IMG/VR virus record: IMGVR_UViG_3300045738_000853
Location: 1 to 49,026 of that record
Reading direction: 5' to 3' (one strand)
Origin: a virus
Length of the DNA stretch: 49,026 nucleotides
Below are positions 1,513 through 44,200 of the stretch, one piece after another. The position numbers and the translations under genes are program-made. How positions within the stretch are numbered: the first letter of the stretch is position 1; each line of letters opens with the position of its first letter. Below the pieces are notes generated by a model, which saw nothing but the letters and a program-made list of their open reading frames with translations, ran no database searches and was not told the origin of the DNA.

Positions 1513-1513
1513 G

Positions 1514-2587
1514 CTAGTTCTGCCCCCGCTCTAATCCTAACAGTTGGTTCATGGTGTCAGCCGCCATTTTCATACATCGCTGCTTTTCTTCTTCGAGATT
1601 GAGTTCTCCTAGCATTGTTGCAATCCTATGAAAATATGTATGCCCGGAAGCAACCTTATTAAAACCTCTGTTTATATAAGGAATTCTCTCATCAGGATAT
1701 TTCAGATAGTGATTGATGAGTTCAACAAATTCTTCTGGATTTTTAGCAAAAACAATTTCGTCTTCATCAAAAACATCTTCCGCCATGGATTGCACATAGT
1801 CTGAAATGCAGAACCCGCCACTAAAAAGAACCTTAAAGGGTCTCTCTATAATATCATAGCCAAAATCTTGCGAGTGTGGTTCACTTATATTGGGACAAAT
1901 TGTGGCAGAGCGGAAAACATCCTTGACATCTTCATTTCCTATAAAGCCCATGTACTGGCAAACGGGCCAGTTTTGCCCGCCGAATATCTTTATGTTATAC
2001 CTACCCACCGGGTGGCAGAGGGGGATTATATACCTATCTAGCGTTTTTGCCTTATAGGGCCAGTATCCGCCAACAAAAGAAATGTCACTGACTAGATGGT
2101 CGTATGTGGTGGACTTGTTGTATTCATACACATCGGCGGCATGCATCATGGAGACTGGTTTAATGTTTATAGTCTCCCATTTGCCGTGTGTTTTCTTCAT
2201 CCAGTTTTTGTGATAATGATTATATACGAAGTCAGGCTTTCCGGTTTCTTCCTTTAACAATCCGACTAAATCTATCTCCTCTTGATGCGCCACAAGAACG
2301 GGGTATTCCTCTAGGTCAATTTTGTCTTGCTGTTCCCCCCAATCAGAAGCTCTGAGAACCACCTTTAGGTGCGGTCTATTCTTGATGCACTTAAAAACGG
2401 CCCTGTCGAGATTGTAAGTCTGCCCAATAAATATATCAGGTTCGAACTCATCAAAGGCATCAAATGCGGGCTTTTCGAAAATATCCCAAAGAATTACCTC
2501 ATAGCCCATGGCCGAAAACACTTTGGCCCAAGCCATTCTAATATGATAATGAGCATGAGGCCCATCGCTAGCAATCATTACCCTCAT
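1514..2587 (-). CDS. CgeB-like glycosyltransferase
   Basis: A 357-residue protein with the layout of GT-B glycosyltransferases of the CgeB/DUF3880 kind. An N-terminal Rossmann-like half begins MRVMIASDGPH. The C-terminal half has the family signature of an SEPHSQDFG stretch followed by ERPFKVLFSGGFCISD, where the Glu and the Gly-Gly-Phe contact the nucleotide-sugar in relatives. There is no signal peptide or membrane segment, so it is likely cytosolic. It starts inside the stop of the nucleotidyltransferase (ATGA overlap), implying coupled translation. Donor and acceptor are unknown. Confidence 0.75.
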   Translation of the reverse strand: MRVMIASDGPHAHYHIRMAWAKVFSAMGYEVILWDIFEKPAFDAFDEFEPDIFIGQTYNLDRAVFKCIKNRPHLKVVLRASDWGEQQDKIDLEEYPVLVAHQEEIDLVGLLKEETGKPDFVYNHYHKNWMKKTHGKWETINIKPVSMMHAADVYEYNKSTTYDHLVSDISFVGGYWPYKAKTLDRYIIPLCHPVGRYNIKIFGGQNWPVCQYMGFIGNEDVKDVFRSATICPNISEPHSQDFGYDIIERPFKVLFSGGFCISDYVQSMAEDVFDEDEIVFAKNPEEFVELINHYLKYPDERIPYINRGFNKVASGHTYFHRIATMLGELNLEEEKQRCMKMAADTMNQLLGLERGQN

Positions 2588-3294
2588 TGTAAATCCTTAA
2601 TAGCATCCACTTCGTATATTTCCATTTCTTGTGGCTCAACAGCCTTTAACGTTCCGTTGTTTTTAACTATATTGTTCAAGATTTCAAAAGTGTACATCTT
2701 ATTTTTATTTCTATCCGAGCATTCTTTCTTAAACATATATAGCTCCTCTCCTGTAAGATAGACAATTTGTGCCCACTTTGTGGAAAGGCCATAAGCAAAA
2801 GTTGTGACGACTCCGTCAACTATAGTTACGCCTATTTCGTCATCCTTAAATCTGCCAGACGAGTCTGTTATTACAGAAGATTCATTTCTATTAATGGCCT
2901 GTATGGTTTTGGGGTTAAACACTAAATCCCCATGTATTATCAAAACACTATCAGAAACAGAGTTGTTTATAGCTAGTCTTAAGCTTTCTATTGTGTTGGT
3001 TTCTTTATATAGTTGATTTTCTATGATTCTTACATAGTCAGGAATTTTGCTAATAATTTTGTCAGCCTCAAAGCCCACGCAAACAATAATCTCGTCTTTG
3101 GAAAAGACTGTATTTACGTTGTGTATAATTTTCTCAATAATTGTCTCGTGTTCACTGACATTTAAAAGACACTTAGGGCCATAAGATTTCATTCTATAAC
3201 CCACCCCGGCAGCAGGAATAATAACACTCATTGTTTGAGGTTTTTTATTTCGGCCCTTCTTGGTCGGGGCTATAAACCTGTTATATCTGGGCAT
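2584..3294 (-). CDS. Sugar nucleotidyltransferase (NTP_transferase fold)
   Basis: The product has the pyrophosphorylase nucleotide-binding signature IIPAAGVGYRMKSYGPKCLL, with the conserved Pro-Lys, close to the N-terminus. LIIHGDLVF supplies the metal-binding Asp of GT-A-like nucleotidyltransferases. It should activate a sugar phosphate or related alcohol phosphate with CTP, UTP or GTP. At about 236 residues it resembles short IspD/choline-phosphate-type enzymes more than full sugar pyrophosphorylases. The frame is open to 3378, but a start at 3294 (14-base overlap with the upstream GT2 gene) or at 3231 (directly before the motif) fits better. Substrate is undetermined. Confidence 0.75.
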   Translation of the reverse strand: MPRYNRFIAPTKKGRNKKPQTMSVIIPAAGVGYRMKSYGPKCLLNVSEHETIIEKIIHNVNTVFSKDEIIVCVGFEADKIISKIPDYVRIIENQLYKETNTIESLRLAINNSVSDSVLIIHGDLVFNPKTIQAINRNESSVITDSSGRFKDDEIGVTIVDGVVTTFAYGLSTKWAQIVYLTGEELYMFKKECSDRNKNKMYTFEILNNIVKNNGTLKAVEPQEMEIYEVDAIKDLQ

Positions 3295-4075
3295 GCTGTC
3301 TTTGTTGTATTTTTTCCGCAACCCTACGCCAATTTTGTTGCCAGATATCCTCTTTAATAACAGAGGAAGAGTTCTCACCTGTAATCCTAACTAATGTTAG
3401 GGCTTCTGGGATGTGCATAATCAAAAAGTTTTCGCTGATTCTAGCCCAAAGGTCGTAGTCCTCACAGACTCGCATTGTTCTGTCATAGTATCCTGTTTCT
3501 TCTTCTACAGTCATAAAAGCTTGTGCGCTGACCATGGAGCCACTGTGTACGATACATTCCTCTAGAAGCCGCTGTCGACTGAATGGCTCTTTGTATTCCC
3601 TGATAATCTTTCCACTGTTTGTGTCCAGCGTGTCATAATCACCATAAACAGCACCAATTCTATCAGGGTCTGCTTTAAAAACGGAAAGCATTCTGCTAAT
3701 TTTTTCAGGATACATTTCATCGTCAGCATCAAGCGTCACATACGAAAAGCTTCTATCCATAGTGCGCTTTATGGCTATATTTCTAGCCTCACTTGGGCCA
3801 AGCGCCTGTTCTGTTTTTATTGCCAAAAAAGAAAAATTGGTGGCGGTTGAAGCCTCAACAACAAGAAGGCCATCTTCCTCTTTTGTGGTTTTCGAATTAC
3901 CCTTCAGGCATTTTTCAGAGACAATATCCCAAGAGTTGTCTGTGGACCCGTTGTCTACAATTGCAACAATAATAGGTCCATGGTAGTCCTGCTTAAGAGC
4001 GCTATCTATACATCCACTAAGATACTCGCCATTATTGTGATTGGCTATGAGAACAGTAACTACTGGTGGTCCCAT
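3281..4075 (-). CDS. Family 2 glycosyltransferase
   Basis: A 264-residue GT-A enzyme. TVLIANHNNGEYLSGCIDS and VDNGSTDNSWD are the classic N-terminal GT2 blocks, and TLDADDEMYPEK contains the metal-binding DxD. The later CEDYDLWARISE segment matches the ED/W acceptor loop of inverting GT2 enzymes. The ATG at 4075 overlaps the upstream stop (TAATG) and has a GGGAGG ribosome site about 10 bases upstream; an in-frame GTG at 4093 is less attractive. It probably adds one sugar to a lipid-linked or protein-linked glycan. Specificity cannot be read from sequence. Confidence 0.88.
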   Translation of the reverse strand: MGPPVVTVLIANHNNGEYLSGCIDSALKQDYHGPIIVAIVDNGSTDNSWDIVSEKCLKGNSKTTKEEDGLLVVEASTATNFSFLAIKTEQALGPSEARNIAIKRTMDRSFSYVTLDADDEMYPEKISRMLSVFKADPDRIGAVYGDYDTLDTNSGKIIREYKEPFSRQRLLEECIVHSGSMVSAQAFMTVEEETGYYDRTMRVCEDYDLWARISENFLIMHIPEALTLVRITGENSSSVIKEDIWQQNWRRVAEKIQQRQHAQI

Positions 4076-4998
4076 TATGTCAAATCCTCCCACTTCACAA
4101 CTAGATTATCAAACTCCTGCATTTTAGCAATCTTTCGGACTTTTTCATCTATAGGTTGAGATATTTCAAAATTAGTTGTATCTTTGCTCCCGCTCAAATA
4201 TTTATGAAGAGCACAGGAGACGGTCAAGCCATCATGAGAGCTTTCATCGAATGGTTCAATCATTAAGACCTGTTCCAAGTCTTCATTGATGGCGTGGTTA
4301 ATTGTCTTAAGAAAATCTAAAGGAACTTCCGTGCCACAGTTAAAAACCGCGTAATAGCCGTTAACAACAAAGGCAAAAGAGGCTTCTAGCAAGGTCCAGA
4401 AATCAGAATTTTTTTCGACCATGCTACCCCCAACAAAGGTCGTTCCCTCTTCAGATTTATTCAAATAAGAAGTTTGTTCTGCGTAGCTACCAAATACTTC
4501 GTGAAGTTTATGTACAATATCAAAATTATCTTTGTTAGAGTTATTCATAGTTATGACCTTAACGGCCTCAAATTCCTCCTGCGTGGCTATAGAAAGAAGA
4601 GTTTTTTCTAAACCCTCAAGGGTATCGTCTTCATTGATAGGCACAATAAAATTAACCCTAACAGCATTCTCTTTGAGAACACGCTTCTTTTTATGCTTCC
4701 AATATTCCGCCCAGTCCTGCTCTCTATAACAGTTGCACATTCTGTGTATGAGATAAAATTCCTTCTCTCCATCCTCGGCTTCTATTATCTTTGTTCCTTT
4801 TTCTCGAAATTTTTCTATTCGTCCTAATTCACAACCCACCTGAGTTTTGTCTTCGTATTCAGCAAAGCAACAAGCCGCACAGGAGGTTACAACTTCCTCT
4901 CCTCTATAAGTTCCGGGTCCAGCGGCAGCCTGTTTCTGGTCGAAATCCGCCTCTGTCTCGGAATTTGTTATCAGGTCTTGTCCTTTAGATTTACTCAT
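4075..4998 (-). CDS. Cys-cluster protein with glycosyltransferase-like C-terminal domain
   Basis: A 307-residue protein in two parts. Residues about 30-100 hold a cysteine cluster (SCAACC, then VGCELGR, then HRMCNCYR), a plausible zinc or iron-sulphur site. From about residue 110, RVNFIVPINEDDTLEGLEKT resembles the first strand and helix of a GT-A glycosyltransferase, but I see no clear DxD, so it may be inactive or use another motif. It sits between a GT2 gene and a methyltransferase-like gene with ATGA/TAATG overlaps, so it almost certainly serves the same glycan pathway. The function is not recognised. Confidence 0.6.
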   Translation of the reverse strand: MSKSKGQDLITNSETEADFDQKQAAAGPGTYRGEEVVTSCAACCFAEYEDKTQVGCELGRIEKFREKGTKIIEAEDGEKEFYLIHRMCNCYREQDWAEYWKHKKKRVLKENAVRVNFIVPINEDDTLEGLEKTLLSIATQEEFEAVKVITMNNSNKDNFDIVHKLHEVFGSYAEQTSYLNKSEEGTTFVGGSMVEKNSDFWTLLEASFAFVVNGYYAVFNCGTEVPLDFLKTINHAINEDLEQVLMIEPFDESSHDGLTVSCALHKYLSGSKDTTNFEISQPIDEKVRKIAKMQEFDNLVVKWEDLT

Positions 4999-5441
4999 TG
5001 TCTTTCTGCCTCTACCGAAAATTTAAACCCGTTTATTCGCTTCTTAAGAAGCTTAAGACCCCTACCTTCTAGTTCGTTACACATGTTTTTCAAGGTGAGT
5101 TGATTCAAACGAACGTCCCATCCTTGCGATTGTTCGCCATGTATTAAGTTGTTTAGTTCTTCCAGACTTATCGTATTTTGAGCAAACATCTTGCAGACCT
5201 CGTAAGCGTCTGTGCCTCCGATAATTATAGTGCCTTGGTGTCTTAGTTTGGAAATCCAATTATCCAAAATCGACGGCAACTCTTCCTTTGGCATATAGTC
5301 TACAATATCTTCGGCAATAATTTCAAAGCATTCAGCATTATCAACATACTCGTCCAGATTCCTGATTTCCAAGTCTTTAAGAGCACTTATATTGAGATAT
5401 CCGCTTTTATCGGCGCCTCCAATAACGAGATTAATTTTCAT
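4995..5441 (-). CDS. Small SAM-methyltransferase-like protein
   Basis: A 148-residue protein resembling the small, truncated class I methyltransferase folds often found among glycosyltransferase genes. FEIIAEDIVDYMP corresponds to the Asp strand/helix after the SAM pocket, and the LRHQGTIIIGGTDAYE segment to the beta-4/beta-5 region. A typical GxGxG motif is not visible (INLVIGGADKSGYLN takes its place), so cofactor binding is uncertain. The gene overlaps both neighbours by four bases. It could methylate a sugar or be a non-catalytic partner. Confidence 0.5.
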   Translation of the reverse strand: MKINLVIGGADKSGYLNISALKDLEIRNLDEYVDNAECFEIIAEDIVDYMPKEELPSILDNWISKLRHQGTIIIGGTDAYEVCKMFAQNTISLEELNNLIHGEQSQGWDVRLNQLTLKNMCNELEGRGLKLLKKRINGFKFSVEAERQ

Positions 5442-6466
5442 TTGAACCTTCCAGTATAAGGTGTTTTGGATACCGTGTTAAAAACCCTGTTCCATTCATT
5501 TACAAATCTATCCTCTGAAAAATCTTCTAAGATGGTTTTTCTGGCCTGTTCGCCAACCTCTTTTGCTAGTTCTGCATTATTAAGAAGTTCCACCAGCATT
5601 TCTTTAAGCTCTTCTTCATCATTAGATATAAAACCGTTAACACCATTTTCTATTATTTCTGGTATCATACAGGTCGCGGTAGAAACAACCGCACAGCCGC
5701 AAGCCATCGCTTCTAACAGAGACGTGGGGATTGGAGAAATAGTTGAGGTGTTAAGAAATATCCGACTGCCTTGATATGCCCTTACCAGTTCGTCAAAACT
5801 TGATGCTGGCTTGGAAAGCCCCGGAGTGTCACCAAGAACACTGACCGGCAATCCTCTGGTTACCTCTTGCCATATAGTAAAACCACAGCACCAGTCTCTG
5901 TTTATCCAATCATTGACTACGGATAAAATATGCGCTTCTCTTTTTAGAGATTTTTCGGGCTTAAATGCCTCGCTATCAACCCCGTGTTTTATTATTAAGG
6001 TGTCGGACTTACTGTCCCAATTCCATCCCTCGATGCTATATTCTGAAATGAACACATTGGCGTCGGCTCTCATATTTCTAAGACTTGCGCGCATTTTCTG
6101 GTCCCAAAACGGGATGGGCAAAGTATGTTCCAAGCTGACCATCGGAAGATGTAACGTGTCGGCAATTTGATGTGCTATCTGAAACTGTCCAAACTTATTT
6201 TGGGAGAGTATCAAATCTAAATCTAGACTTAGGGGAATTTGCCTTCCTTGTAGAGATTCGTCTAGAAGAATGTAGTTGTCTGGAATCTCTGCATAATCAG
6301 TGTTCCAGTCCTTGATTCCGGGTGCGCGATAGGAATAAAAATTGTGTCCGGTTCTGGCAAGAAGGGTCTCGTACCTTTCGTGTGTAGGAAAGGTCAGGAT
6401 GTTCAAGGGGCCGTCAGGGTCTCTTGTTGCGGCTCTTGTTATGGAAGAAATTGGGCTAATCGACAT
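5438..6466 (-). CDS. GT-B glycosyltransferase, GT4-like
   Basis: A 342-residue GT-B fold enzyme. The middle contains IKHGVDSEAFKPEK, the usual linker between the two Rossmann domains. The C-terminal half has PTSLLEAMACGCAVVSTATC, the E-x7-E type donor-binding motif of retaining GT4 enzymes, followed by IIENGVNGFI. The N-terminal acceptor domain is short. The coding sequence overlaps the upstream GT4 by 11 bases and the methyltransferase-like gene by four. It probably acts in the cytosol on a growing phage-encoded glycan. Confidence 0.85.
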   Translation of the reverse strand: MSISPISSITRAATRDPDGPLNILTFPTHERYETLLARTGHNFYSYRAPGIKDWNTDYAEIPDNYILLDESLQGRQIPLSLDLDLILSQNKFGQFQIAHQIADTLHLPMVSLEHTLPIPFWDQKMRASLRNMRADANVFISEYSIEGWNWDSKSDTLIIKHGVDSEAFKPEKSLKREAHILSVVNDWINRDWCCGFTIWQEVTRGLPVSVLGDTPGLSKPASSFDELVRAYQGSRIFLNTSTISPIPTSLLEAMACGCAVVSTATCMIPEIIENGVNGFISNDEEELKEMLVELLNNAELAKEVGEQARKTILEDFSEDRFVNEWNRVFNTVSKTPYTGRFK

Positions 6467-7589
6467 TTTCTAATTCATCTTTGATTAATTGTCCGACTTT
6501 TTCGTAGGAAAAACTTTCGACGGCATCTTTACCCTGTTTTTGAAGCTTTGTGTACGAGCTTTCATCTGACTTGTACATTTCGTACACTTTTCTCATTTCT
6601 AATTGCAGCTTTCTAATATCAACCCTTGTCCAATCTTCATCCCCGGTGAATATATCTTCAAAGGTTTCTGTCATGCCAAAAACAGGCTCCGAATACCCCG
6701 GCATGAGAGAACCCCCTCCGCTTTTTAGAAAATCGGACATTCCTCCGACATCTGTGCAAATAGGAGTCCTGCCAAAGCCCATGGCGTCGAATGCGGGAAT
6801 ACACCAAGCCTCACCATAGCTCGGCATAACAAAACAGTCGCACGTTGTATGAATCCTACAAACATCTTCTTCTGTTAATCTATCTGTCGCTATAAGCTCT
6901 TCTTTGTACTCTTCAAGAGACGGATATAGCTTTAGGCTTGTCTTGACCTGTAGACATAAATCCCTAACTTTTTCTGCACACTCATCTGGAGATAGTCCAT
7001 ATTGGCTTGTCTTTATGAGTAATTCAACACCTTCATTCGTGTCAAATTCTAAGTGAAACGCTTTTAATAAGGCGGGAAGATTTTTTCTGGGGGTTAAGTC
7101 ACCTATAAAATAGAAAACAAAACTATCCCGTAATTCTGGAGCTTCGAGTAGATTATATGTTCTGTTGAACTTATCTGTATCAGAGGCGTGAGGAATAACC
7201 TTTATTGGTATTTTCACGCCGCTATCTAACGAAGCTTGCTTTGATTGGTTGTTAATTACCCAAGCTTCGTCCATGGTGTTAATTCTTTGCGTCCACGCAG
7301 AACGCTTAAAATGACTGGTCTCTGTGGCGTATAATGCAATATTTTTGTCAAATTTTCCGTTATAGTCCATATAGTGAGGAAGAATATGCTGAATGCAGAC
7401 GCTGCATTCGTTAGAATCTTTGCTCTCAAGTTCTAGAATTCTGCGAGGAAGGTCTTCTTGGGTTTGGTTAAGTTTTAAAGGACGGCATACCACATCTATG
7501 CCGACAAAATCCATAGAAAGTATGTAGTCTATAGCGGCCTGCCCCCAGCCGGTATGGTCTCTATAGCAACCAATGTAAAGTACTTTCAT
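6456..7589 (-). CDS. GT4 glycosyltransferase
   Basis: A 377-residue GT-B enzyme. KVLYIGCYRDHTGWGQAAID is an N-terminal Rossmann start with the glycine-rich acceptor loop. FVFYFIGDLTPRKNLPALL is the interdomain strand with the Lys-Asn typical of GT4. CFVMPSYGEAWCIPAFDAMG contains the donor-site Glu region. The ATG at 7589 is favoured because it gives a four-base ATGA overlap with the upstream gene and has AGGA six bases upstream; the frame is open to 7628. It is one of three consecutive GT-B genes. Confidence 0.85.
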   Translation of the reverse strand: MKVLYIGCYRDHTGWGQAAIDYILSMDFVGIDVVCRPLKLNQTQEDLPRRILELESKDSNECSVCIQHILPHYMDYNGKFDKNIALYATETSHFKRSAWTQRINTMDEAWVINNQSKQASLDSGVKIPIKVIPHASDTDKFNRTYNLLEAPELRDSFVFYFIGDLTPRKNLPALLKAFHLEFDTNEGVELLIKTSQYGLSPDECAEKVRDLCLQVKTSLKLYPSLEEYKEELIATDRLTEEDVCRIHTTCDCFVMPSYGEAWCIPAFDAMGFGRTPICTDVGGMSDFLKSGGGSLMPGYSEPVFGMTETFEDIFTGDEDWTRVDIRKLQLEMRKVYEMYKSDESSYTKLQKQGKDAVESFSYEKVGQLIKDELENVD

Positions 7590-9229
7590 TCCCATTCCTG
7601 TATCATCTGGCCGCGTACATTTTCCCAATAGTTTCTTTTCATTCGTATTTCATACATAGCTTGATAGGCTTCTTCAGGTCCGAATGGCTCAAACTGTGGT
7701 CTATTATGAGCCATTGAGTCTTCGTTGATGTATACGTCTCCGGTTCCCTGAATATAAACGCCATAATTCAAATCTCTAATCATGCGAGATTCCATATACG
7801 AATTCAGCATTTTTTCATCACCAAGAACATTTAGAATGAGCCACCTTACATATTCTTTGTTGTTAAGTCCATTAGGAATTTTGCTGGCGGGTTGAAATAT
7901 TTCGGGAGCAGATTTCCATCTGTCTTCTGGTGGCCGGTAGATGGCATCAAAAAACTCCTCCCATTTTTCTGCGGTGGTATCCCATTGATACTTATCTACA
8001 AAGTTCTTTCTGCAAATGGCTCCTTTTCTTCTTATTTCGTCATCTGAAAGATTAAAGAACTCAAGCATCTTTTCGCACGTATAGTCGTTATCAGGCATTG
8101 CCCTATAGCAGCCCGTTTCAAGCTCTAGATATTTTGTTTTCAGTTTGAGAGGCTCACCCTCTAGATTTCTAATAACGCTACTCATAGCAGAATAGTCTAC
8201 GGACATTACGAAAACACCACAGGCTGCGGCTTCCACCTGTGGTAATCCAAACCCCTCGGAGTTTGCATACTGTATGTAGAGGTCAAATAGATTTACAATT
8301 TCTGACAACGCTTTTGTGTCAACGCCTTTCTGAACATTCGATAAACTTGCAGCATGTTGCCCACATTTAGGACATCGACAGACGGCATCCTGAAAAAAGG
8401 ACGGAAACCAGTTTTGGCAATTAGCACAAACGTAGGTAAAAAGTGTCTTGCTGGCTATTCCATGTTTCTTTAAGAGTTTCGGTATATCCCAGCCTAAATC
8501 TGGATAGCTTGTGTGGCAGTAGAGATAAACATCATCTCTGCCAGACTCTTTGATGAATTTAGAAAAAGCTTCGAAAAGGTCGGGATACAGTTTTCTACGC
8601 TGATTGCGCATTACCGTTCCGACAATCTTACAACTGCCATCAAACCCTAAAGACTCTTTATGCGCGACCTTATCCGCAACCGGCTGGTAGGCTGCGTCTG
8701 CCGATGGAGGAGCAACGCCTCTGCAATTGATTTTCCCCCCGCTTTCTTCAAGGAGGGTGTCCATGCCGAATTCTGAGTAATTAAAAACAGAATCTGCTTT
8801 GGAATATGTTGCTAACCATTGTTCGTTTTGTGGGTGGGCGTCCACGGTAGGCATTATCGCCCACCAAAAAAGCCTCCTAAAAGGAGACCTTTCCTGATAA
8901 TCCATCATCCAAAAGTCTCTGATATCAAATACAATATCAGGTCTAAAGTCTAGAAGCACATGCTCAAATCTCCATTCACCAAATTGGTTGGTGGACACAG
9001 ACATGTATTCCTGTTTTTGCTGCTCATCAGACTCATCGGGAAGGTTAGGATAATACCGCCACGGTATAGTTGAAGCCCTGTCATCGGCTGCACTTCCATA
9101 GCTAGCAAACTCGGCAAGCTCGTATTTATCTTTCTCGTATAGACGCTTCATAACCTCCCGGCCATACGTTGCATAGCCGGTGTTTAAAAACGTAGCTTCG
9201 CTACAGAGAAGTATCCTCTTCTTCTTCAT
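7586..9229 (-). CDS. GT4-like glycosyltransferase with inserted zinc ribbon
   Basis: A 547-residue GT-B protein. The N-terminus KRILLCSEATFLNTGYATYG is an acceptor-domain start with a Thr/Gly-rich loop, and YANSEGFGLPQVEAAACGVF is the C-terminal donor motif. Between them (around residues 270-300) lies a CANC...CRCPKC cysteine cluster that looks like a complete zinc ribbon inside the second Rossmann domain, unusual for GT4 enzymes. The roughly 100 residues after the donor motif are also longer than normal. The start overlaps the sigma-factor gene by 29 bases with only a weak ribosome site. Confidence 0.8.
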   Translation of the reverse strand: MKKKRILLCSEATFLNTGYATYGREVMKRLYEKDKYELAEFASYGSAADDRASTIPWRYYPNLPDESDEQQKQEYMSVSTNQFGEWRFEHVLLDFRPDIVFDIRDFWMMDYQERSPFRRLFWWAIMPTVDAHPQNEQWLATYSKADSVFNYSEFGMDTLLEESGGKINCRGVAPPSADAAYQPVADKVAHKESLGFDGSCKIVGTVMRNQRRKLYPDLFEAFSKFIKESGRDDVYLYCHTSYPDLGWDIPKLLKKHGIASKTLFTYVCANCQNWFPSFFQDAVCRCPKCGQHAASLSNVQKGVDTKALSEIVNLFDLYIQYANSEGFGLPQVEAAACGVFVMSVDYSAMSSVIRNLEGEPLKLKTKYLELETGCYRAMPDNDYTCEKMLEFFNLSDDEIRRKGAICRKNFVDKYQWDTTAEKWEEFFDAIYRPPEDRWKSAPEIFQPASKIPNGLNNKEYVRWLILNVLGDEKMLNSYMESRMIRDLNYGVYIQGTGDVYINEDSMAHNRPQFEPFGPEEAYQAMYEIRMKRNYWENVRGQMIQEWE

Positions 9230-9722
9230 CCTTATTCGCTTCTCTCATTTTTTTTAGTATCTTCTTGATTTTCTGTTTAACTTCATTTTTGTTGCAACAC
9301 ATTATTTCAGAAATTTCTTTGTAGGTGTGATTTTTCAATTTCATATCAATAATATCTATCTCATCTTTAGTCAAATTATCCGGCTGGTATTCCCACAGAA
9401 GGATTTCTTGGGGCTTCTTTTCGCGGAGATTTAGGCGACGGTTTTGCCTTTTCTGCTTCTTGATGAATTTAAGTATTTCATTTCTAATGCACACTGTGGC
9501 AAAAGTAGAAAACTTGCTTTTTTCTGAATTGTAGTTTCTAATCGCCTTCAATAATCCAATCAACCCAATTTGTATATAGTCGTCCAAATCTTGTTTTTGG
9601 GTAATAAATTTTATGGATTGAGACACAACTAGACCGTAGTTGTCTATAACCATCTTCTCTTCTGAATCAGCGTTTATAGCTTCAGATTTTATATTAAGCT
9701 TTTGCTTCTTCTGGGGACTCAT
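9201..9722 (-). CDS. Phage RNA polymerase sigma-70 family factor
   Basis: A 173-residue compact sigma factor. Region 2 is clear: DLDDYIQIGLIGLLKAIRNY, then KFSTFATVCIRNEILKFIKK, the core-binding and -10-reading helices. Region 4 is a C-terminal helix-turn-helix (HTYKEISEIMCCNKNEVKQK). There is no obvious region 1 or 3, as in small alternative sigmas. It would redirect the host polymerase to later phage promoters. The ATG at 9722 is preferred; the frame extends to a TTG at 9764 that would overlap ssb by 71 bases. It is expressed downstream of ssb, probably from the 10.6-kb promoter. Confidence 0.85.
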   Translation of the reverse strand: MSPQKKQKLNIKSEAINADSEEKMVIDNYGLVVSQSIKFITQKQDLDDYIQIGLIGLLKAIRNYNSEKSKFSTFATVCIRNEILKFIKKQKRQNRRLNLREKKPQEILLWEYQPDNLTKDEIDIIDMKLKNHTYKEISEIMCCNKNEVKQKIKKILKKMREANKDEEEEDTSL

Positions 9723-10071
9723 GGGTAGGTACTTCAGATTCCGTATTTCTAGTATGCGCCCCAATAAGCTTAAACTTGTTGACTCTAAACTTTATTTTTG
9801 AGTTTCTATTACCGTCATTGTCTGTCCATTTATCTTGTCTTCCAGTGGTAAATACAGCCAACTCGTCGCCCTTTTGACAATACTTACAGATTGTGGTTGC
9901 CCCGCTGTCCCAAGCCTCAAAATCAAAATAATCGACCCTCTTGGTCTTTTTGCCATCACGAGACCTGCGGTAATCTTCTACGGCTAGGGTAAATCTGGCT
10001 ACATGGGTACTGTCAACAGGAACAAGCTCAGGATTCTGTGCTAGTCTACCAATAAAATTGCAACTATTCAT
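9694..10071 (-). CDS. ssb: Single-stranded DNA-binding protein
   Basis: A 125-residue bacterial-type SSB. It opens with MNSCNFIGRLAQNPEL, the standard first OB-fold strand, followed by RFTLAVEDYRR and YFDFEAWDSGATTICKYCQK. It should coat single-stranded DNA at the replication fork. The C-terminal tail is short (ESPEEAKA) and lacks the acidic Asp-Asp-Ile-Pro-Phe tip that recruits partners in bacterial SSBs. GGAGAG lies four bases upstream of the ATG, inside the end of the preceding gene. Confidence 0.92.
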   Translation of the reverse strand: MNSCNFIGRLAQNPELVPVDSTHVARFTLAVEDYRRSRDGKKTKRVDYFDFEAWDSGATTICKYCQKGDELAVFTTGRQDKWTDNDGNRNSKIKFRVNKFKLIGAHTRNTESEVPTHESPEEAKA

Positions 10072-10567
10072 TAGACTCTCCTTGGTTTAAAATAATCAAC
10101 CTATACCCTTCTTCTACTCCGTTCTCTTTCGCCACTACTTCCCAGTCTTCTGAAAAGTCAGGAAAAGCAGCATAAAAGATTGTGGCTAATTTGTTTTCTA
10201 GTTTAACTTCCTCCTCTGCACTGGGTCCAACAACAACGTCTATAAAGTTCGTTTCAAATAACTCTTCGCCTTCTTCGTTGTAATAAACTATAAAGTCTTC
10301 AGATAAGCTCCATAGGGAGGCTTTGATTAGTATGTCTTGAAAGATTACTATTCTCGCAGCATATCTTGGACAATCTACTTCATGAATTTCTTCATACCAA
10401 TCGGAATAGTATGAAAGAGTTCCATCGTTTATAGTATATATACAAGACTGCTCCTCCATTGTCGGGCTAGATATAATTTTTGGTGGGTACATTACTAGAC
10501 ACGACTCCCCGTCGTGCATCGGAGACACCTTGATAACGTAATTATGGTTTTTGAAAAACTCTAGCAC
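10064..10567 (-). CDS. Unknown protein, first gene behind a consensus promoter
   Basis: A 167-residue acidic protein that I do not recognise. It has no membrane segment, cysteine cluster or nucleotide motif. The frame opens at a GTG (10567) only about nine bases past the predicted transcription start and without a ribosome site. An ATG at 10519 has AAGGTG eight bases upstream and would give 151 residues, so the start is ambiguous. As the first gene in the ssb-sigma unit it may be an early replication accessory, but that is position-based inference. Confidence 0.6.
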   Translation of the reverse strand: MLEFFKNHNYVIKVSPMHDGESCLVMYPPKIISSPTMEEQSCIYTINDGTLSYYSDWYEEIHEVDCPRYAARIVIFQDILIKASLWSLSEDFIVYYNEEGEELFETNFIDVVVGPSAEEEVKLENKLATIFYAAFPDFSEDWEVVAKENGVEEGYRLIILNQGESNE

Positions 10568-10582
10568 AGTACGCTCTGTGAT

Positions 10583-10611
10583 ATTATATCAGTAGAATCG
10601 CCCTTTGTCAA
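10583..10611 (-). promoter_or_regulatory. Consensus sigma70 promoter with extended -10
   Basis: On the minus strand TTGACA (10606-10611) is followed by exactly 17 bases and TATAAT (10583-10588), with TG one base before the -10. It occupies the 45-base gap between the stop of the polymerase C-terminal gene and the next gene. It should start transcription near 10576 using unmodified host polymerase, driving the unknown gene, ssb, the sigma factor and perhaps the glycosyltransferases. A match at all 12 positions with ideal spacing is very unlikely by chance in 49 kb. Confidence 0.85.
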
Positions 10612-10612
10612 G

Positions 10613-12295
10613 TCATATTTGAAAAACTTTTTGAACAATCAGGCTGTCCTTCTTCTTAGACCTTTGTCCCGTCACGAGTATGGTGTTTCCTTCATATAGT
10701 AAATGTTTATTTTTCGCCCACTCTTCGCTAAAACAAACAACATTATCTAGTTCACAGCTACCGTCTTCTACAGTCAAAAATCCCATTTTTTGTCCTTTAG
10801 ATTGTCCTCTGGTGATTTCATATTCACGAGATGACTTTACCGCAACTGCTAAAACTGCGGTCCCGTTTCTGCCACTGAGAAACTCTTTGCACGTTGAGTT
10901 TGCAGCACCTGTATCACAAGAGTCCACCTTAGAGTATGTAAGACAGGTTCCCAGCAACTCCTCCTCGGTTCCAGAAACCCACTCAGGGTCATCTTGAAGA
11001 GAGTAGGGGGAAGATTTCAATTGGTATACATAGTCCGCAACAATCTCAGACCTTTTTGTTGTGGAGGTTCCTCCACCATTCTTTTTAGTGGGCTGTAAGC
11101 TCTCTAGGCATTGTCTGAGGTTTTCCCAGTCGGAGTCCTCCACCTTGTCGCCAACCCACTCTCTTTCCTTCGCCGTTAATTTTGCCCAAATGTCATATTC
11201 GTATAGCATCTTATTTCTGCTCAAGCCCATATGTGATAATGCCCCGGCTGATATTAGAGAAGTTATTACCTTGCTGGTGACTTTGGTGGCACAAGATACT
11301 AAGAACTCTAACCAAGACCAGTCCGCTGGAGGTTTGCACAACTCGTGAGTAGCCTCAAGAACTGCGTTAGTCAACTTTTCTAATTGACTATTCCCAATAA
11401 ATTTTATATCCCCCACGCCAAAGTTGATTTCATTGTTATATATAGAAAAGCTGCGATTCATTTTGACAATTGACGGTGGATAAACGGGTACGTCAGAAAT
11501 TTTTGCATCGGATACCAACTCTCTTATCTCTTGTTGAGAGTCCTGTTTTCCTTTTGAGTAGTACAGATAGTTGCAGTAAAAATTGACAGGAAAATGCGCT
11601 TTAGCATAAGCAGACCAATAACCACAAATAGCATAGCTAACAGCATGGGACTTATTAAAAGCGTAGCGATTCGATTTTTCAATCCAACCGAATATCTCTT
11701 CCGCTGTTTCTTTAGAAACCAATCCGACATTTTCTGTTCCAGATAAAAACTCTTTCTTTACTGAGGCCATCAAATCGGCCTTCTTTTTACCTATCGCTTT
11801 TCTAAGTTCGTCAGCCTGCTGCAAGTCAAATCCGGCAATTGTCTGAGCAATTTCCATGGATTGTTCTTGATAAACCAACACCCCCTGAGTTGATTTTAAT
11901 ATAGGCTCTAGACAGTCATCAAGATAAGATACCTCTTCCTCTCCATGTTTCCGGTCAACATAATGCTGTGTCATGGACTTCCCGTCCACGATTGCCTTCA
12001 AGCATCCCGGTCTAATCAAAGCAACAAGAGCGGCTAACTGCTCTATATTTCTAGGCTTTAATCTCTTGGCCCAAGATTTTCCCAAATTGCTCTCAAGCTG
12101 AAAAACGCCCTTGGTCCTGCCGTCACATATCAGACCCCATGTTTTTTCACAGGTATAAAAGTCAGCATCTTTGTCTTGTTTTTCTGCGATATCAAAGATA
12201 ATCGGTGGTAGACCGGTTTGCTTTCTTGTAACCAAGCCTTCGTCTATTTCAGAAATGTCAAATTCACACCCGCATTTAAACGTATAGTACGCCAT
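10613..12295 (-). CDS. dnaE: DNA polymerase III alpha subunit, C-terminal half (split gene)
   Basis: A 560-residue protein matching the fingers and C-terminal part of bacterial replicative polymerase. GVFQLESNLGK and ALVALIRPGC are the conserved blocks after the palm, followed by VYQEQSMEIAQTIAGF, ADELRKAIGKKK and FNKSHAVSYAICGYWSAYAK (template and dNTP contacts). Then come a helix-hairpin-helix-like region and an OB-fold end (FLTVEDGSCELDNVVCF). No catalytic palm aspartates are present; they sit on the separate N-terminal gene. The ATG at 12295 has AAAAGG nine bases upstream and overlaps the exonuclease by 20 bases. A CGC pair near residue 8 starts a short leader not seen in ordinary DnaE. 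Confidence 0.9.
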   Translation of the reverse strand: MAYYTFKCGCEFDISEIDEGLVTRKQTGLPPIIFDIAEKQDKDADFYTCEKTWGLICDGRTKGVFQLESNLGKSWAKRLKPRNIEQLAALVALIRPGCLKAIVDGKSMTQHYVDRKHGEEEVSYLDDCLEPILKSTQGVLVYQEQSMEIAQTIAGFDLQQADELRKAIGKKKADLMASVKKEFLSGTENVGLVSKETAEEIFGWIEKSNRYAFNKSHAVSYAICGYWSAYAKAHFPVNFYCNYLYYSKGKQDSQQEIRELVSDAKISDVPVYPPSIVKMNRSFSIYNNEINFGVGDIKFIGNSQLEKLTNAVLEATHELCKPPADWSWLEFLVSCATKVTSKVITSLISAGALSHMGLSRNKMLYEYDIWAKLTAKEREWVGDKVEDSDWENLRQCLESLQPTKKNGGGTSTTKRSEIVADYVYQLKSSPYSLQDDPEWVSGTEEELLGTCLTYSKVDSCDTGAANSTCKEFLSGRNGTAVLAVAVKSSREYEITRGQSKGQKMGFLTVEDGSCELDNVVCFSEEWAKNKHLLYEGNTILVTGQRSKKKDSLIVQKVFQI

Positions 12296-12959
12296 CTGCA
12301 AACGCCTTTTCAAACTTGGTTTTGGAGCCAATTCTTCTCTGATGCTTCCAGAATCGTATAAAAATATTAGCCGTATCTTTTACGTCTTGTAAGGCGTCGT
12401 GAGCATTATCTGTCTCCAGAGATAAAAAGTCTCTCATGGAATCCATGCTCATAGATTTAACATTTGGGTTACTTTCAAGCCACCCATAAGCGAGGTCTAA
12501 AACATCCACCTTGTGAATTTTATGAAACAGCGCCTGATTGCCATTTTTGTCAGTGGGGCCAAACTGTTCACACAATCTTTGTATGATAATCATATCGTAA
12601 TTGATAATGTTGTAACCCACGGGTATCGGGGCAAACCATTGTGTTTTCTTGAAGTTGTATTTATTAACGAACTTTACAAATTTTTCCCAGACCTGTTTAG
12701 GTTGTGGAGCTTTAGCTAGTGTCTTCCTATCTTTTCTGGTAATGCTTAGGGCTTCTTCTTCCAGAGGGTCTAACCCCATCTCTATCGCCTTTTCGTCATC
12801 AAGGATGGGGCGAATTTCACTGTTGAAAAACCCTCCGGGCTGTGGGGTCAGCTTTCTGCCATGGATTGCCACCGCCGCCAACTGTGTGGGCTGTGCTTTG
12901 TGGGGATTCTTTGAACCCGTTTCGAAATCAAAAACAATGTAATCTCTATTAGGCATCAT
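12276..12959 (-). CDS. DnaQ-like 3'-5' proofreading exonuclease
   Basis: A 227-residue DEDDh exonuclease. IVFDFETGSKNP is the ExoI motif (Asp and Glu metal ligands), VGYNIINYDMIIIQ the ExoII region, and NAHDALQDVKDTA the ExoIII motif with the catalytic His and last Asp. It probably acts as the epsilon-like proofreader for the split polymerase, whose halves lie either side. AAGGAG seven bases before the ATG at 12959 makes the start firm; it overlaps the upstream nuclease by 11 bases. A C-terminal basic segment may contact the polymerase. Confidence 0.88.
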   Translation of the reverse strand: MMPNRDYIVFDFETGSKNPHKAQPTQLAAVAIHGRKLTPQPGGFFNSEIRPILDDEKAIEMGLDPLEEEALSITRKDRKTLAKAPQPKQVWEKFVKFVNKYNFKKTQWFAPIPVGYNIINYDMIIIQRLCEQFGPTDKNGNQALFHKIHKVDVLDLAYGWLESNPNVKSMSMDSMRDFLSLETDNAHDALQDVKDTANIFIRFWKHQRRIGSKTKFEKAFADGVLYV

Positions 12960-13446
12960 TCAACATCTCCTTAATCAATTTGATTGCTTCTTCTTTTTCT
13001 AGATTGTCTATCCTTTTAAACAACTTGTCTAGAATAGACCCCTTGGTGTACACGTAGCCAGCAGAGTTATTGTCACCCCCAAAGGCTACCTTTTTGTGAG
13101 GCTCAACCTCTTCCATAAATACTCTTAAGGAAGAAACAGAGGAAATCCACACCGCTTTAGAGCCGTCGTCTTCTGGCAAGACGTGAATCCATAAGTTAGC
13201 CTTGGTTACAGCAACACCGCTAGGTTTGTCAGCCTTACTGTTGTGATATTCTATATAAATGTTGCCCGTAGTGCTAGACTTGTCGTCAAATTTAACTTCG
13301 GCAGTAAATTTCTTCCTCCCCATTTTGCAAGATAGGTCGTAGTCATATCTTTTGTCATAGTCTTCATTGATTTCACACTTTATATCAAGAAGTTCAAGGA
13401 CTCCCTTGGCACACTCCTCTCCGCTTTTGCCTTTTTGAAAACTCAT
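12949..13446 (-). CDS. PD-(D/E)XK-type nuclease, resolvase-like
   Basis: A 165-residue protein whose N-terminal 60 residues look like a PD-(D/E)XK core: GKSGEECAKGVLELL (helix with the conserved Glu), YDYDLSCKMG (metal Asp) and FTAEVKFDD (Glu-x-Lys). This arrangement is found in Holliday-junction resolvases and restriction-type nucleases. It may resolve branched replication intermediates. It lies between the two polymerase halves, where a mobile or formerly mobile nuclease would be expected if it had split the gene. An ATGA overlap joins it to the preceding gene. Confidence 0.6.
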   Translation of the reverse strand: MSFQKGKSGEECAKGVLELLDIKCEINEDYDKRYDYDLSCKMGRKKFTAEVKFDDKSSTTGNIYIEYHNSKADKPSGVAVTKANLWIHVLPEDDGSKAVWISSVSSLRVFMEEVEPHKKVAFGGDNNSAGYVYTKGSILDKLFKRIDNLEKEEAIKLIKEMLNDA

Positions 13447-13661
13447 CTAATTTTTCTCTTGAGTTCTAGAAATTTCTTTACCGCTTGCGAGGAACTTTCA
13501 TATAACTCGCTGTGCTTAATTTTTGTGTCGTCGCAATGAACTTGATACAGAGTCTTTCTACGAAAAGAATTACCATCATAGTCGTTAATTGTGCATAAGG
13601 ATAATCTACCCTTCTCCAACGCACACCCGTCCAGCAGGACCGCTTCGTAATGCTCCTTCAT
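13443..13661 (-). CDS. Small unknown protein between polymerase halves
   Basis: A 72-residue protein with no recognised domain. It has three cysteines and a basic C-terminus (KKFLELKRKIR). Its reality is supported by AGAGG six bases before the ATG at 13661 and by the ATGA link to the nuclease. It overlaps the end of the N-terminal polymerase gene by 55 bases in a different frame, so the last 18 residues of that polymerase fragment are constrained by a second reading frame. It might help join the two fragments, but nothing in the sequence proves this. Confidence 0.6.
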   Translation of the reverse strand: MKEHYEAVLLDGCALEKGRLSLCTINDYDGNSFRRKTLYQVHCDDTKIKHSELYESSSQAVKKFLELKRKIR

Positions 13662-15597
13662 TGTTAACCTCTATATCTCCTGAGAATAATTGATTACTAA
13701 TACCCATGATTTTATCTAGCAAATTTACGCCCAAAATATCAAATTTAACATGCCCCATGGCCTCTAGGTCTACCATTTCCATGCCAGCAATTCTATCTTG
13801 CCCTTTTGTTTCTCTAACCATCGGACAAACTTCATTAAGTATTCTGGATGAAATGACAACTCCAGCAGCGTGCTTACCTTGAGATTTGTATGTACCCTCA
13901 ATTCGAATAGCTTGTGCAAACAATTTTGCATATTCGCCATTGAGAGAGCCATCTTCTGCTATCCGGCAATAATCATTCAAGACTTCTGGCTGATGTAGCA
14001 TCGTCCATCGTATTACCGAAGACTCTTCCATGTCTTGTAGCTGGTCCGAAATTTCGTGTTCCTGCGGCAGCGCTTTGGTAATCCTGTTCATTTCATCGTA
14101 GGAACAAGCGTTATGCACGCGGAGAACCTCTTTAAGCGCGCTCCTGCCTTGCAGTCTTCCAAATGTAACCATCTGGCTAACATTATTATACCCATACTTA
14201 GATTTGATATAGTCAATTACTTCGTCCCTTTTTGTGGCAGGGACATCAATATCTATATCTGGAAGTGAAATATGGCCCTCAGAATTTCTTCCCGCGTTGT
14301 AGAATCTTTCAAAAATCAACCCATATTCAATCGGGTCCACCTGAGTAATTCCCACTAGGTATGACACCAAGCAGCCAGCAGCGGAGCCTCTGCCCGGACC
14401 CGGAAGCCAGCCCTGATTTTTCACATAAGAGACAATATCTCTTACAATTAAGAAATACCCTGAAAGGTTCGCATCATTGATAACCTCTAGCTCTTTTTTA
14501 ATTCTGTTTACATAGATATCTTCATTTTCTTGTGTAGATACCTTGCCTCGTTTTTTTAGTCTTTGTCTCCATCCCTGTCTGCATAATTCTCTGAGATATT
14601 CCTTTTCGGCCATGTTGTCAGGGCATGGAAACTTGGGAAGATTGGGTTTGCCCAAAATGTCATAATCCTCACACATGCTCGCAACAAGTGAGGTATTTGA
14701 AATTTCCTCTTCAGTGTGAATCTCTTTCATCTCTTCTAGAGACGGTATGTGAAAATTGTTTGAACGAAAGAATCCACTTAGGCCGACATCGTTTCCTGCC
14801 AGCAATTTCTCTTCAACTTTTTTAAGCGTTGTTTTCATGGCGGAACAAAGTAGTATCCTCTGGTCCGCTGCGTCTTCTTTTCTTGGATAGTGCGAATCTG
14901 CCGTTGCTACCGGAGGAATTCCGGTCTTTTCCGATACTTTGCGTAGACACTCTCCGACCAATTTTGATGCTGGCGAGTTGTCTTGGTCTATCAGTTGAAT
15001 TTCGATAAAGAAATTGCCCTTGCGGAAAATCTGTTGATATCGTTCGGCCAAGCTAGACGCTTGTTTAAGCCAGTCTTGCTTCAAAAAGGTTTGAGTTTCT
15101 TCAATTGTGTTGGAGTTATAGGCTTTCTTCCAGTCGGTAAACAGGATGTTAGCAAGGTCGCTTCCGAGATGACCGCTAAAAGATACCAAGTTATTATTTC
15201 GATTGTCTTCTTCAAGTATATCTAAGTCAATTCTGGGCTTGAAGTAGAACACATCATCCTTGTTGCTTTTGGAAACAAGCGCAATAAGGTCGTTCCACCC
15301 CCCTTTATTCTTGGCTAAAACCACAAGGTGACTGAGGGTTCTATTTGTTTTCTCTTTTATGGTGGCGCTCTGTTGAGAGAGGTAGAATTCGCACCCTAGA
15401 ATGGGCTTGATGCCCTTTTCACGCATCGCTCTGACGAACGTGACGGCCCCTGAAATCGTTCCGTGGTCAGTTACGGCACATGCACCGTACCCTAGCTCCT
15501 CACAGCGCTCTGCGACCTGTGAGGGCTTCGAGAGGCCATCTAGGAGGCTGTAGTGCGTGTGTAGGTGTAGGGGGACAAATTTAGCCGGGTGCATCAT
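13606..15597 (-). CDS. dnaE: DNA polymerase III alpha subunit, N-terminal half with PHP and palm (split gene)
   Basis: About 663 residues. The PHP domain at the start keeps metal-binding motifs HLHTHYS, VTDHGT, GCEFYL and ATADSHYP, so it could be an active phosphoesterase. The palm follows: GPGRGSAAGCLVSYL, then LPDIDIDVP (two catalytic Asp, about residues 447-451) and GHVKFDILGVN (third catalytic Asp, about residue 620). The protein ends about 43 residues later, exactly where fingers should begin; these are encoded by the gene at 10613-12295. Starts at 15597 or 15594 (tandem ATG) are preferred over an upstream TTG. Confidence 0.92.
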   Translation of the reverse strand: MMHPAKFVPLHLHTHYSLLDGLSKPSQVAERCEELGYGACAVTDHGTISGAVTFVRAMREKGIKPILGCEFYLSQQSATIKEKTNRTLSHLVVLAKNKGGWNDLIALVSKSNKDDVFYFKPRIDLDILEEDNRNNNLVSFSGHLGSDLANILFTDWKKAYNSNTIEETQTFLKQDWLKQASSLAERYQQIFRKGNFFIEIQLIDQDNSPASKLVGECLRKVSEKTGIPPVATADSHYPRKEDAADQRILLCSAMKTTLKKVEEKLLAGNDVGLSGFFRSNNFHIPSLEEMKEIHTEEEISNTSLVASMCEDYDILGKPNLPKFPCPDNMAEKEYLRELCRQGWRQRLKKRGKVSTQENEDIYVNRIKKELEVINDANLSGYFLIVRDIVSYVKNQGWLPGPGRGSAAGCLVSYLVGITQVDPIEYGLIFERFYNAGRNSEGHISLPDIDIDVPATKRDEVIDYIKSKYGYNNVSQMVTFGRLQGRSALKEVLRVHNACSYDEMNRITKALPQEHEISDQLQDMEESSVIRWTMLHQPEVLNDYCRIAEDGSLNGEYAKLFAQAIRIEGTYKSQGKHAAGVVISSRILNEVCPMVRETKGQDRIAGMEMVDLEAMGHVKFDILGVNLLDKIMGISNQLFSGDIEVNNEGALRSGPAGRVCVGEG

Positions 15598-16603
15598 AAT
15601 ATCCAATATTAAAGCCCTTTTTGGTGCAATCGGTAATAGTCTTTTCTATACCGTCTTCTTTAAGTTTATCATGAATATGTTGACAAATATTCTTATCTGT
15701 CCCCTCCCAGTTGTTCTTATAGTAGTCACAAAGCCTTGTACATTTCCAGTGGGTCTGCCCTGCTGAAAGCATCTTGGGCATATCCGTATTTTGTATCTGT
15801 AGGAAGCGATTTTTTAGCATCTCCACAAACTTTTCTTCGTCAGACTGGTCAAAGCACAGGGAGAAAGGCCCGCCATCCTTGATGTAAAAGATGGTCATTA
15901 TAGCCTGTTGATATTCTGGGAACAGTTTAGATATCGCGTAATTATACAGCAGGAGTTGAGGGTCTACCTCAAGCTTTTCGTAGGTCTTCTCCTGCCCGGT
16001 TGCCCAGTCCAGTCTTCTGCCCGTTTTCCAGTCTACCACTTCTATAATACCATCGTCCACCCTTGTGACGAGGTCAATTGTCCCCTTGACGGCCAACCGA
16101 CCCTTGAGGGTCGAACCATCTGGTGTCTGGTACTCGTATTCAGCCCAATCCTCTTCGATGGGGATATCGAAGTGAGGTTCCGTTGCAACTATATCTCGGA
16201 GGCGAGGGTCGAACTGGCCGTTGTTATATTCGAGGGCCATCCAAGACCATTTTCTGCAATCGTTCTCCTCTTTCTTGGTGTAGCTATGTGTGCAGTTAGA
16301 GGTGTAGTGTTCAAAGCTTTTGTCAACTAGGTCGTTAACAAATTCCTCTCCCATTAATTTGCTTTTGGTAAAGGTAACCTTTCCAATGGCGTCGTCTGTA
16401 ATGCTCATCAACCCGGAGTCGGGCGCGTCCTGCGTTTTCTTTTTGCACGCTGCAAGACATTCCATCACCTTGTGTACAATGGTCCCCATCTGCGCTTTTT
16501 TTCCAGACGTTGTGGGATGGCCAAGCACGTAGCTTATGAAATACTGCTGTTGACAGTAATCATAATTATTGTATGAAGAGCTTCTGATATAAGTTACTAG
16601 CAC
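15581..16603 (-). CDS. Cas4/RecB-like PD-(D/E)XK exonuclease with probable Fe-S cluster
   Basis: A 340-residue PD-(D/E)XK nuclease. [13 protein letters not shown] gives the helix with the His, [10 protein letters not shown] the catalytic Asp and Lys (D-x-K), and [11 protein letters not shown] the QxxxY motif typical of RecB-family nucleases. A cysteine near residue 17 (YDYCQQQY) together with a C-terminal group (KCTRLC...NIC) matches the layout of Cas4/AddB iron-sulphur clusters. It likely resects DNA ends for RecA recombination. The start is GTG (16603), overlapping thyX by seven bases. No cas genes are nearby, so a CRISPR role is not suggested. Confidence 0.8.
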
Positions 16604-17238
16604 GGAACTCCTTCGCTCCAGCCAAGCGCCTTGGATATAACTGGAAGCTTACAGGAAAAAATGCCCCATTTGATTGCGTTTGCTATGTTCTGGTGCTCTT
16701 TCTGTGTGGACGGGTCTGTTCGCAATTGTAGATAATGAATCCAGCTTCTAACTGTTCCGTTCATGAACATGCGAGTTTTTGTACTGAGCGGCAATAAAAA
16801 TCTTGCGCTTTCTTTTGCTATTCCCCTACTAAGAGCCTCTTTGTATCGAGAGTTACACCTTCTGTTCTGTTCTCGAATAGCTATGTCAAACCACGCTTTA
16901 TCGTTTTCCTCTAAATCATCGAAAGAGTTTTGTCTATTATTTTCGTCTTGCCTTCGAGGTTTGACTTCTTCAAATCCGTCGACTTCAGCATAGCGCTGAC
17001 TAAACTCTTGAAAAGAAAAGCTTCTGTGTCTGAGGATTTGAGTGGCTATGCCTCTTGAGGTGTTAATTTCAATCACCATGTTTGCCATCTCAAAAATAGA
17101 CCAGTGTCCGTGTTTAATACAGTATCCAAAAAGTTTAGATATGTTTGGGTTCTTTTGATTTTTTGGATTGCTTACTCTGGCGCAATACCCGATGATTTCT
17201 TCGGCGTTTGGAGTAATGGATATTAGTTTTACATTCAT
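16597..17238 (-). CDS. thyX: Flavin-dependent thymidylate synthase
   Basis: A 213-residue ThyX. The defining RHRxxSxxExSxR motif is present as [14 protein letters not shown], with upstream [11 protein letters not shown] matching the folate/flavin contact region and a later [16 protein letters not shown] block. It converts dUMP to dTMP using FAD and methylene-tetrahydrofolate. The ATG at 17238 overlaps the kinase stop (ATGA). Together with dUTPase, dCMP deaminase and dNMP kinase it completes a phage thymidylate route. Confidence 0.95.
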
Positions 17239-44104: not shown

Positions 44105-44200
44105 GGTTCCTCGCCTTTTTATGTAGAACGCCTTTGTAGTATTATACCCTGCCCGTAGAGCGTTGGGTGGAGTGAAGGATTGTCGTCATCCGGCCAAGGT

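What the first reader, a model, noticed from the sequence alone, without database searches (positions are those of the whole stretch)
10613..15597. Replicative polymerase split right after the palm
The N-terminal gene holds PHP and all three catalytic Asp of DNA polymerase III alpha; the C-terminal gene holds fingers, helix-hairpin-helix and OB parts. Together they are about full length with little apparent loss. Three genes sit between: a small unknown protein, a PD-(D/E)XK nuclease and the proofreading exonuclease. The break is at a domain boundary, so two chains could assemble. The nuclease in the middle recalls phage genes fragmented by homing endonucleases.
Basis: partly seen in the sequence, partly recalled or inferred. 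Interest (0 to 1): 0.75.

Follow-up and report, generated by a model that had tools for sequence, protein, structure and literature searches.

The report
Two-piece phage DNA polymerase III alpha
A large, uncultured group of phages builds its main DNA-copying enzyme from two separately made pieces, with the gene for its proofreading partner always lying between the two halves; the split is old and fixed, not an error.

Summary
In this IMG/VR phage contig a C-family replicase (DnaE) is encoded by two genes. One carries PHP, palm/thumb and all catalytic Asp; the other carries fingers, HhH and OB. They break at the palm-fingers joint, in an operon with a 72-aa protein, a probable PD-(D/E)XK nuclease and a DnaQ-like exonuclease between them. 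It is not an assembly error: all 376 relative loci holding both halves (231 distinct C-chain ends) are split, always with the exonuclease between. Split relatives form one clade; unsplit phage and bacterial DnaE lie outside. Both halves are under strong purifying selection, each folds confidently, and together they tile E. coli/Thermus alpha. 19 large relatives show no PolA, PolB or beta clamp. Best reading: an obligate two-chain polymerase assembling non-covalently (assembly inferred). The homing-endonuclease idea is weak for the window: its nuclease occurs only in nearest relatives; the exonuclease is the constant. One related copy does carry a true split intein with a Vsr-like endonuclease, at another site. 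Split phage polymerases are known, including a cultured phage (phiT1) broken at the same joint, so this is a new lineage-wide variant of a known kind.

The parts
13606..15606 (-). N chain of DNA polymerase III alpha: PHP, palm, thumb; PDIDID at aa 449-454 and third catalytic Asp at aa 623; stops 43 aa after it
   Evidence: Pfam PHP and DNA_pol3_alpha; AF2 pLDDT 89.7, Z 43-45 to E. coli/Taq alpha residues 1-640; Asp conserved in 165-166 of 167
13443..13661 (-). Small 72-aa protein of unknown function; overlaps the N gene by 56 nt
   Evidence: No Pfam/PHROG/NCBIfam match; relatives at the same place in 41 of 79 loci; dN/dS 0.08-0.14
12949..13446 (-). Probable PD-(D/E)XK-fold nuclease (motif by eye); accessory, only in nearest relatives
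   Evidence: phrog_13596 9.8e-12, function unknown; present in L001, L002, L011, L015 and the window only
12276..12959 (-). DnaQ-like 3'-5' proofreading exonuclease; the constant gene between the halves
   Evidence: RNase_T 2.1e-12, phrog_192; between the halves in 376/376 loci; dN/dS 0.02-0.03
10613..12331 (-). C chain of DNA polymerase III alpha: N-terminal CGC element, fingers, HhH, OB; likely start ATG 12295, overlapping the exonuclease gene by 20 nt
   Evidence: Pfam finger, HHH_6; AF2 pLDDT 87.5, Z about 22 to E. coli/Taq alpha residues about 573-1121; start from sequence
10064..10567 (-). 167-aa protein of unknown function downstream in the same operon
   Evidence: No family; kept in near relatives, dN/dS about 0.14
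9694..10071 (-). SSB, part of the same replication operon
   Evidence: Pfam SSB 2.6e-16
15581..16603 (-). Cas4/RecB-like PDDEXK_1 nuclease directly upstream of the N gene
   Evidence: PDDEXK_1 6.8e-20, phrog_69 exonuclease

Best explanation
This phage lineage replicates its DNA with a DnaE-type polymerase made of two polypeptides. The N chain (PHP, palm with all catalytic Asp, thumb) and the C chain (fingers, HhH, OB) are translated from one operon through overlapping genes, together with a DnaQ-like exonuclease encoded between them. They assemble without a peptide bond into one active centre, with the exonuclease docking (probably on PHP) as proofreader. The gene split once in the ancestor of the clade, at the linker between palm and fingers, and was fixed together with the exonuclease gene in the gap. 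Later other genes (the window's nuclease, HNH genes, UDG, sugar enzymes) joined the same joint. Shown: the split, its position, its universality in the sampled clade, selection, fold of each half, absence of another detected replicase in large relatives. Inferred: physical assembly, docking of the exonuclease, translational coupling, and how the original break happened.
For: 376 of 376 relative loci with both halves are split with the exonuclease between; 0 unsplit, 14 incomplete. The N chain ends a median of 21 aa after the third Asp, the C chain begins just before W.L..G.TKG.FQLES. Tree: 30 split representatives form one group, SH-aLRT 100; unsplit phage and bacterial DnaE lie outside. dN/dS: N 0.05-0.12, C 0.05-0.07, exonuclease 0.02-0.03. 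Structures of the halves match abutting parts of the same PDB chains. No PolA, PolB or beta clamp in 19 records of 109-206 kb. The exonuclease and C genes abut or overlap in 141 of 166 loci. Precedent: split T4-type gene 43 products of Aeromonas phage 25 co-purify and are active (PMC2988022).
Against: No direct evidence of assembly: the complex could not be modelled here, and inter-chain couplings did not exceed the SSB control. A host DnaE could still take part. Retrieval favoured relatives of the queries, so an unsplit sister may have been missed. Completeness of the large records is unknown.
Confidence: 0.85

Rival explanations
1. The original break was made by a homing endonuclease or a split-intein element (fractured gene) that was later lost or replaced; the exonuclease gene moved in afterwards. 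The two chains still assemble. (This rival concerns the origin only and is compatible with the best explanation of function.)
For: An HNH_3 gene lies between the exonuclease and C genes in L027, similar-looking genes in others, and a T5orf172/MUG113 gene in L048. A related copy (L324) has its C gene broken again at FNK|SHS by a split intein (TIGR01445 4.4e-8 and TIGR01443, both above cut-off) with a Vsr-like endonuclease between. Precedents in PMC2988022 and PMC6892783.
Against: No intein or intron trace at the palm-fingers joint in the window; 26 of 166 relatives have only the exonuclease there; the window's nuclease is confined to nearest relatives. No endonuclease is constant at this joint across the clade.
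Confidence: 0.3
2. The halves are joined after translation by trans-splicing (split intein), or before it by RNA splicing or frameshift.
For: Split inteins are known in cyanobacterial DnaE (own knowledge) and occur in one relative at another site.
Against: No intein-like ends on either chain, no Rfam match in 9000-17000 at E up to 1; three separate genes with their own starts lie between in the window.
Confidence: 0.03
3. Assembly or sequencing error, or gene decay.
For: The window is a metagenomic contig; single-base errors can break genes.
Against: The same break with the same gene between in 376 loci from many metagenomes; both halves under strong purifying selection; all catalytic residues kept.
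Confidence: 0.01
4. The chains no longer form a polymerase together: N acts as a nuclease or regulator and C as a DNA-binding factor, while the host DnaE replicates the phage.
For: No phage clamp was found; PHP metal ligands are lost in about 44% of relatives, so the module is still changing.
Against: Palm Asp residues and fingers motifs (TKG.FQLES, YQEQ, FNKSH) are nearly invariant together, which polymerisation explains best; no other polymerase found.
Confidence: 0.06

Closest known systems
Rossellomorea phage phiT1 (PV767480) gp20/gp18
   Same: Cultured phage with DnaE split at the same palm-fingers joint, a 49-aa gene between
   Different: No exonuclease between; only about 31% identical in the N chain; falls outside the clade in the tree, though one clade is not rejected (p-AU 0.18)
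Minimal split Pol III of group 2.2 jumbo phages (PMC7824862)
   Same: C-family catalytic core in two proteins, thought to reconstitute
   Different: Minimal (lacks the other Pol III domains), genes far apart, accompanies a family B replicase; here full-length, one operon, no PolB found
T4-like gene 43A/43B of Aeromonas phages 25 and 44RR; nrdA of Aeh1 (PMC2988022)
   Same: Essential phage enzyme in two chains that co-purify and work
   Different: Family B polymerase or RNR; homing endonuclease or untranslated spacer in the gap, not the proofreading partner
Split PolA of OM43 phages MEP401/402 (PMC10580990)
   Same: Split replicase seen in most of a phage group, with a small unknown gene between
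   Different: Family A polymerase
Actinophage split DnaE (Send513, Onyinye, Chivey); Maenad; Bacillus phage G; Staphylococcus phage MVC_VPHSA2
   Same: Phage DnaE in two or more genes
   Different: Other break points: after PHP, before PDIDID, or within the palm (phage G with a homing endonuclease)
Cyanobacterial DnaE split intein (own knowledge)
   Same: DnaE in two genes; nearly the same site as the intein in L324
   Different: Joined by protein splicing; the window has no intein and breaks elsewhere

Membership tests
C-family DNA polymerase III alpha (DnaE) | PHP plus palm with catalytic Asp | tested here: met
C-family DNA polymerase III alpha (DnaE) | Fingers, HhH and OB modules | tested here: met
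   (OB below Pfam cut-off but clear by structure)
C-family DNA polymerase III alpha (DnaE) | One polypeptide (usual form) | tested here: not met
   Two genes in 376/376 loci; so it is a split variant, not a canonical DnaE
C-family DNA polymerase III alpha (DnaE) | C-terminal tau-binding domain and clamp motif | tested here: inconclusive
   C chain ends after OB (model aligned to about 1073 of E. coli 1160); clamp motif not tested; no phage clamp found
C-family DNA polymerase III alpha (DnaE) | Polymerase activity | not testable with these tools
   Needs protein
DnaQ-like proofreading exonuclease | DEDDh active site | tested here: met
   D11, E13, H187, D192 in 167/167; RNase_T
Homing-endonuclease-split phage gene | Endonuclease gene in the break, break tied to its presence | tested here: not met
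   Break persists in relatives with no nuclease there
Split-intein fractured gene | N- and C-intein ends on the two chains | tested here: not met
   None in the window junction; met only in L324 at another site
Group 2.2 jumbo-phage minimal split Pol III | Lacks other Pol III domains, distant genes, co-occurs with PolB | tested here: not met
   PHP, HhH, OB present, one operon; no PolB in 19 large relatives

The most novel reading that the evidence does not exclude
The polymerase core of this lineage is an obligate three-chain machine in which the exonuclease encoded inside the break is a structural part of the joint, and the C chain's cysteine element (CGC...C, kept or lost together) is a metal-bound docking piece that evolved with the split: a replicase whose active centre is built from separate palm and fingers chains and is open to regulation by chain exchange.
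Probability: 0.15. Interest if true: 0.75.

Novelty: new variant of a known kind. Interest (0 to 1): 0.52.

Why it matters
It shows that the active centre of a replicative C-family polymerase can be carried by two chains, palm and fingers apart, as the fixed and apparently only replicase of a large, diverse phage clade. The break at the same joint in phiT1 suggests the joint is a natural seam of DnaE. It offers ready-made split polymerases for biochemistry, and a comparative set of hundreds of loci for asking how essential enzymes become multi-subunit and why a proofreading gene lodges in the gap.

Tried and rejected
Assembly error: rejected by 376/376 relatives. Unsplit sister in viral contigs: searched from six queries, none found; retrieval is biased to near relatives. 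Intein/intron at the junction: none. Coevolution between chains (reduced-alphabet mean-field coupling, 154 sequences, Neff 119): N-C rate of strong pairs 6.1 per 10,000 against 6.4 for N-SSB and 3.8 for C-SSB, so no information. Inter-chain metal ligand matching the CGC element: no N-chain Cys/His tracks it perfectly, and the partial matches follow the PHP-bearing branches. Single origin with phiT1: neither rejected nor shown. PDB relative for the middle nuclease: none. L301 (bacterial MAG) looked split but differs by one in-frame stop in a DnaE, possibly another genetic code; set aside. L081-L083, labelled phage, carry bacterial-type DnaE and group with bacteria. Literature searches found no report of this lineage's split, but only open-licence papers are held.

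Full report
What is there. The window is a 49,026-base IMG/VR virus record. On its minus strand lies a replication operon: DnaB-like helicase, primase, dNMP kinase, ThyX, a Cas4/RecB-like nuclease, then N chain - 72-aa protein - probable PD-(D/E)XK nuclease - DnaQ-like exonuclease - C chain - 167-aa protein - SSB - sigma factor. The genes from N to C overlap: N/small by 56 nt, small/nuclease by an ATGA, nuclease/exonuclease by a few bases, exonuclease/C by 20 nt if C starts at ATG 12295 behind GAAAAGG.

The break. N carries PHP and DNA_pol3_alpha; C carries fingers, HHH_6 and an OB. The two tile one phage DnaE profile (phrog_405: 40-607 and 631-1067) and the Thermus enzyme (to 635, from 639). 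N stops 43 residues after the third catalytic Asp (median of the clade 21), at the linker between palm and fingers. AlphaFold2 models of each half alone are confident (pLDDT 89.7 and 87.5) and align to abutting parts of E. coli and Thermus alpha (N: about 1-640; C: about 573-1121 in the respective numbering).

Relatives. Scans of viral contigs with window sequences, two alignments and three deep-branch members gave 390 loci; 376 hold both halves, all split, all with the exonuclease between, none unsplit. These loci include overlapping pieces of some contigs; 231 different C-chain ends are represented. Two more lie in contigs binned into MAGs (L244, L245). In 19 records of 109-206 kb no family A or B polymerase and no beta clamp was found, so the split enzyme appears to be the phage's replicase, perhaps borrowing the host clamp (inference).

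The joint. Among 166 non-identical relatives, 26 have only the exonuclease between the halves, about 100 have room for an extra small gene, 28 have larger inserts on the N side and 24 on the C side. Inserts include HNH (L027), T5orf172/MUG113 (L048), UDG (L039; L062 by resemblance), UDP-glucose dehydrogenase (L055), aldehyde dehydrogenase with other genes in a 6-kb insert (L003, L006). The window's nuclease is found only in its nearest relatives. The exonuclease, not a nuclease of homing type, is the constant. That makes insertion of the exonuclease gene, or fission followed by its capture, at least as likely an origin as a homing endonuclease; the data do not decide.

Function. The palm Asp positions are kept in 165-166 of 167 sequences, and the exonuclease's D, E, H, D residues in 167 of 167. 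Between the window and its nearest relatives dN/dS is 0.05-0.12 (N), 0.05-0.07 (C), 0.02-0.03 (exonuclease) and 0.08-0.14 (small, nuclease). The N chain alone has catalytic Asp but no fingers; the C chain has fingers but no catalytic Asp; so selection on both is best explained by one shared active centre. By analogy, split gp43 of Aeromonas phage 25 co-purifies and is active (PMC2988022). Assembly here remains inferred; coupling analysis was uninformative.

History. The split representatives form one group (SH-aLRT 100) away from unsplit phage and bacterial DnaE. A cultured phage, Rossellomorea phiT1, breaks at the same joint with a 49-aa gene and no exonuclease; it falls elsewhere in the tree, but a common origin is not rejected (p-AU 0.18). 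Other phages break DnaE after PHP, before PDIDID, or within the palm. DnaE in phages is thus broken repeatedly, at several seams.

Known or new. Split phage replicases are described for family B (gene 43; MIJ3 with an intein), family A (MEP401) and, for family C, a minimal split Pol III in group 2.2 jumbo phages. I found no description of a full-length, operon-encoded, clade-wide split DnaE with its proofreader in the gap, within the open-licence library searched. I rate it a new variant of a known kind.

Noticed in passing
L324 (IMGVR_UViG_3300024358_000009, contig 199500-206326), 1662-4657: Second copy of the split polymerase whose C gene is broken again at FNK|SHS by a split intein (TIGR01445/TIGR01443 above cut-off) with a Vsr-like endonuclease between: a fractured gene, about three residues from the cyanobacterial DnaE split-intein site (site from own knowledge).
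   Followed up: partly
window 12295 downward (C chain aa 1-60) and relatives: N-terminal CGC element plus a third Cys before the fingers: the third Cys is present in 70/70 CGC-bearing chains but 12/97 others, suggesting a metal site kept or lost as a unit.
   Followed up: partly
N chains of L019, L029, L036, L045, L051 and others: PHP domain shrunken and its metal-binding HxH lost in about 44% of the clade, while the window keeps it.
   Followed up: partly
L018 6832-7326 and L035 6819-7313: A different PD-(D/E)XK-like gene (DFDI...YDVKTK, by eye) sits in the same joint in another branch.
   Followed up: no
L003 1458-7386, L006 1482-7383: A 6-kb block of metabolic genes (aldehyde dehydrogenase, aminotransferase-like, UDP-sugar dehydrogenase-like) inserted between the polymerase halves.
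   Followed up: no
L301: Bacterial MAG DnaE with one in-frame stop near the palm-fingers joint; may reflect stop reassignment in that bacterium.
   Followed up: no
window 553-9229 and 42066-46955: Several glycosyltransferases and nucleotide-sugar enzymes (epimerase, UDP-glucose dehydrogenase, aminotransferase) on both sides of the replication module.
   Followed up: no
L081-L083 (MT836213, MT835501, OQ572403): Records labelled phage carry bacterial-type DnaE and group with bacteria; probably host sequence.
   Followed up: partly
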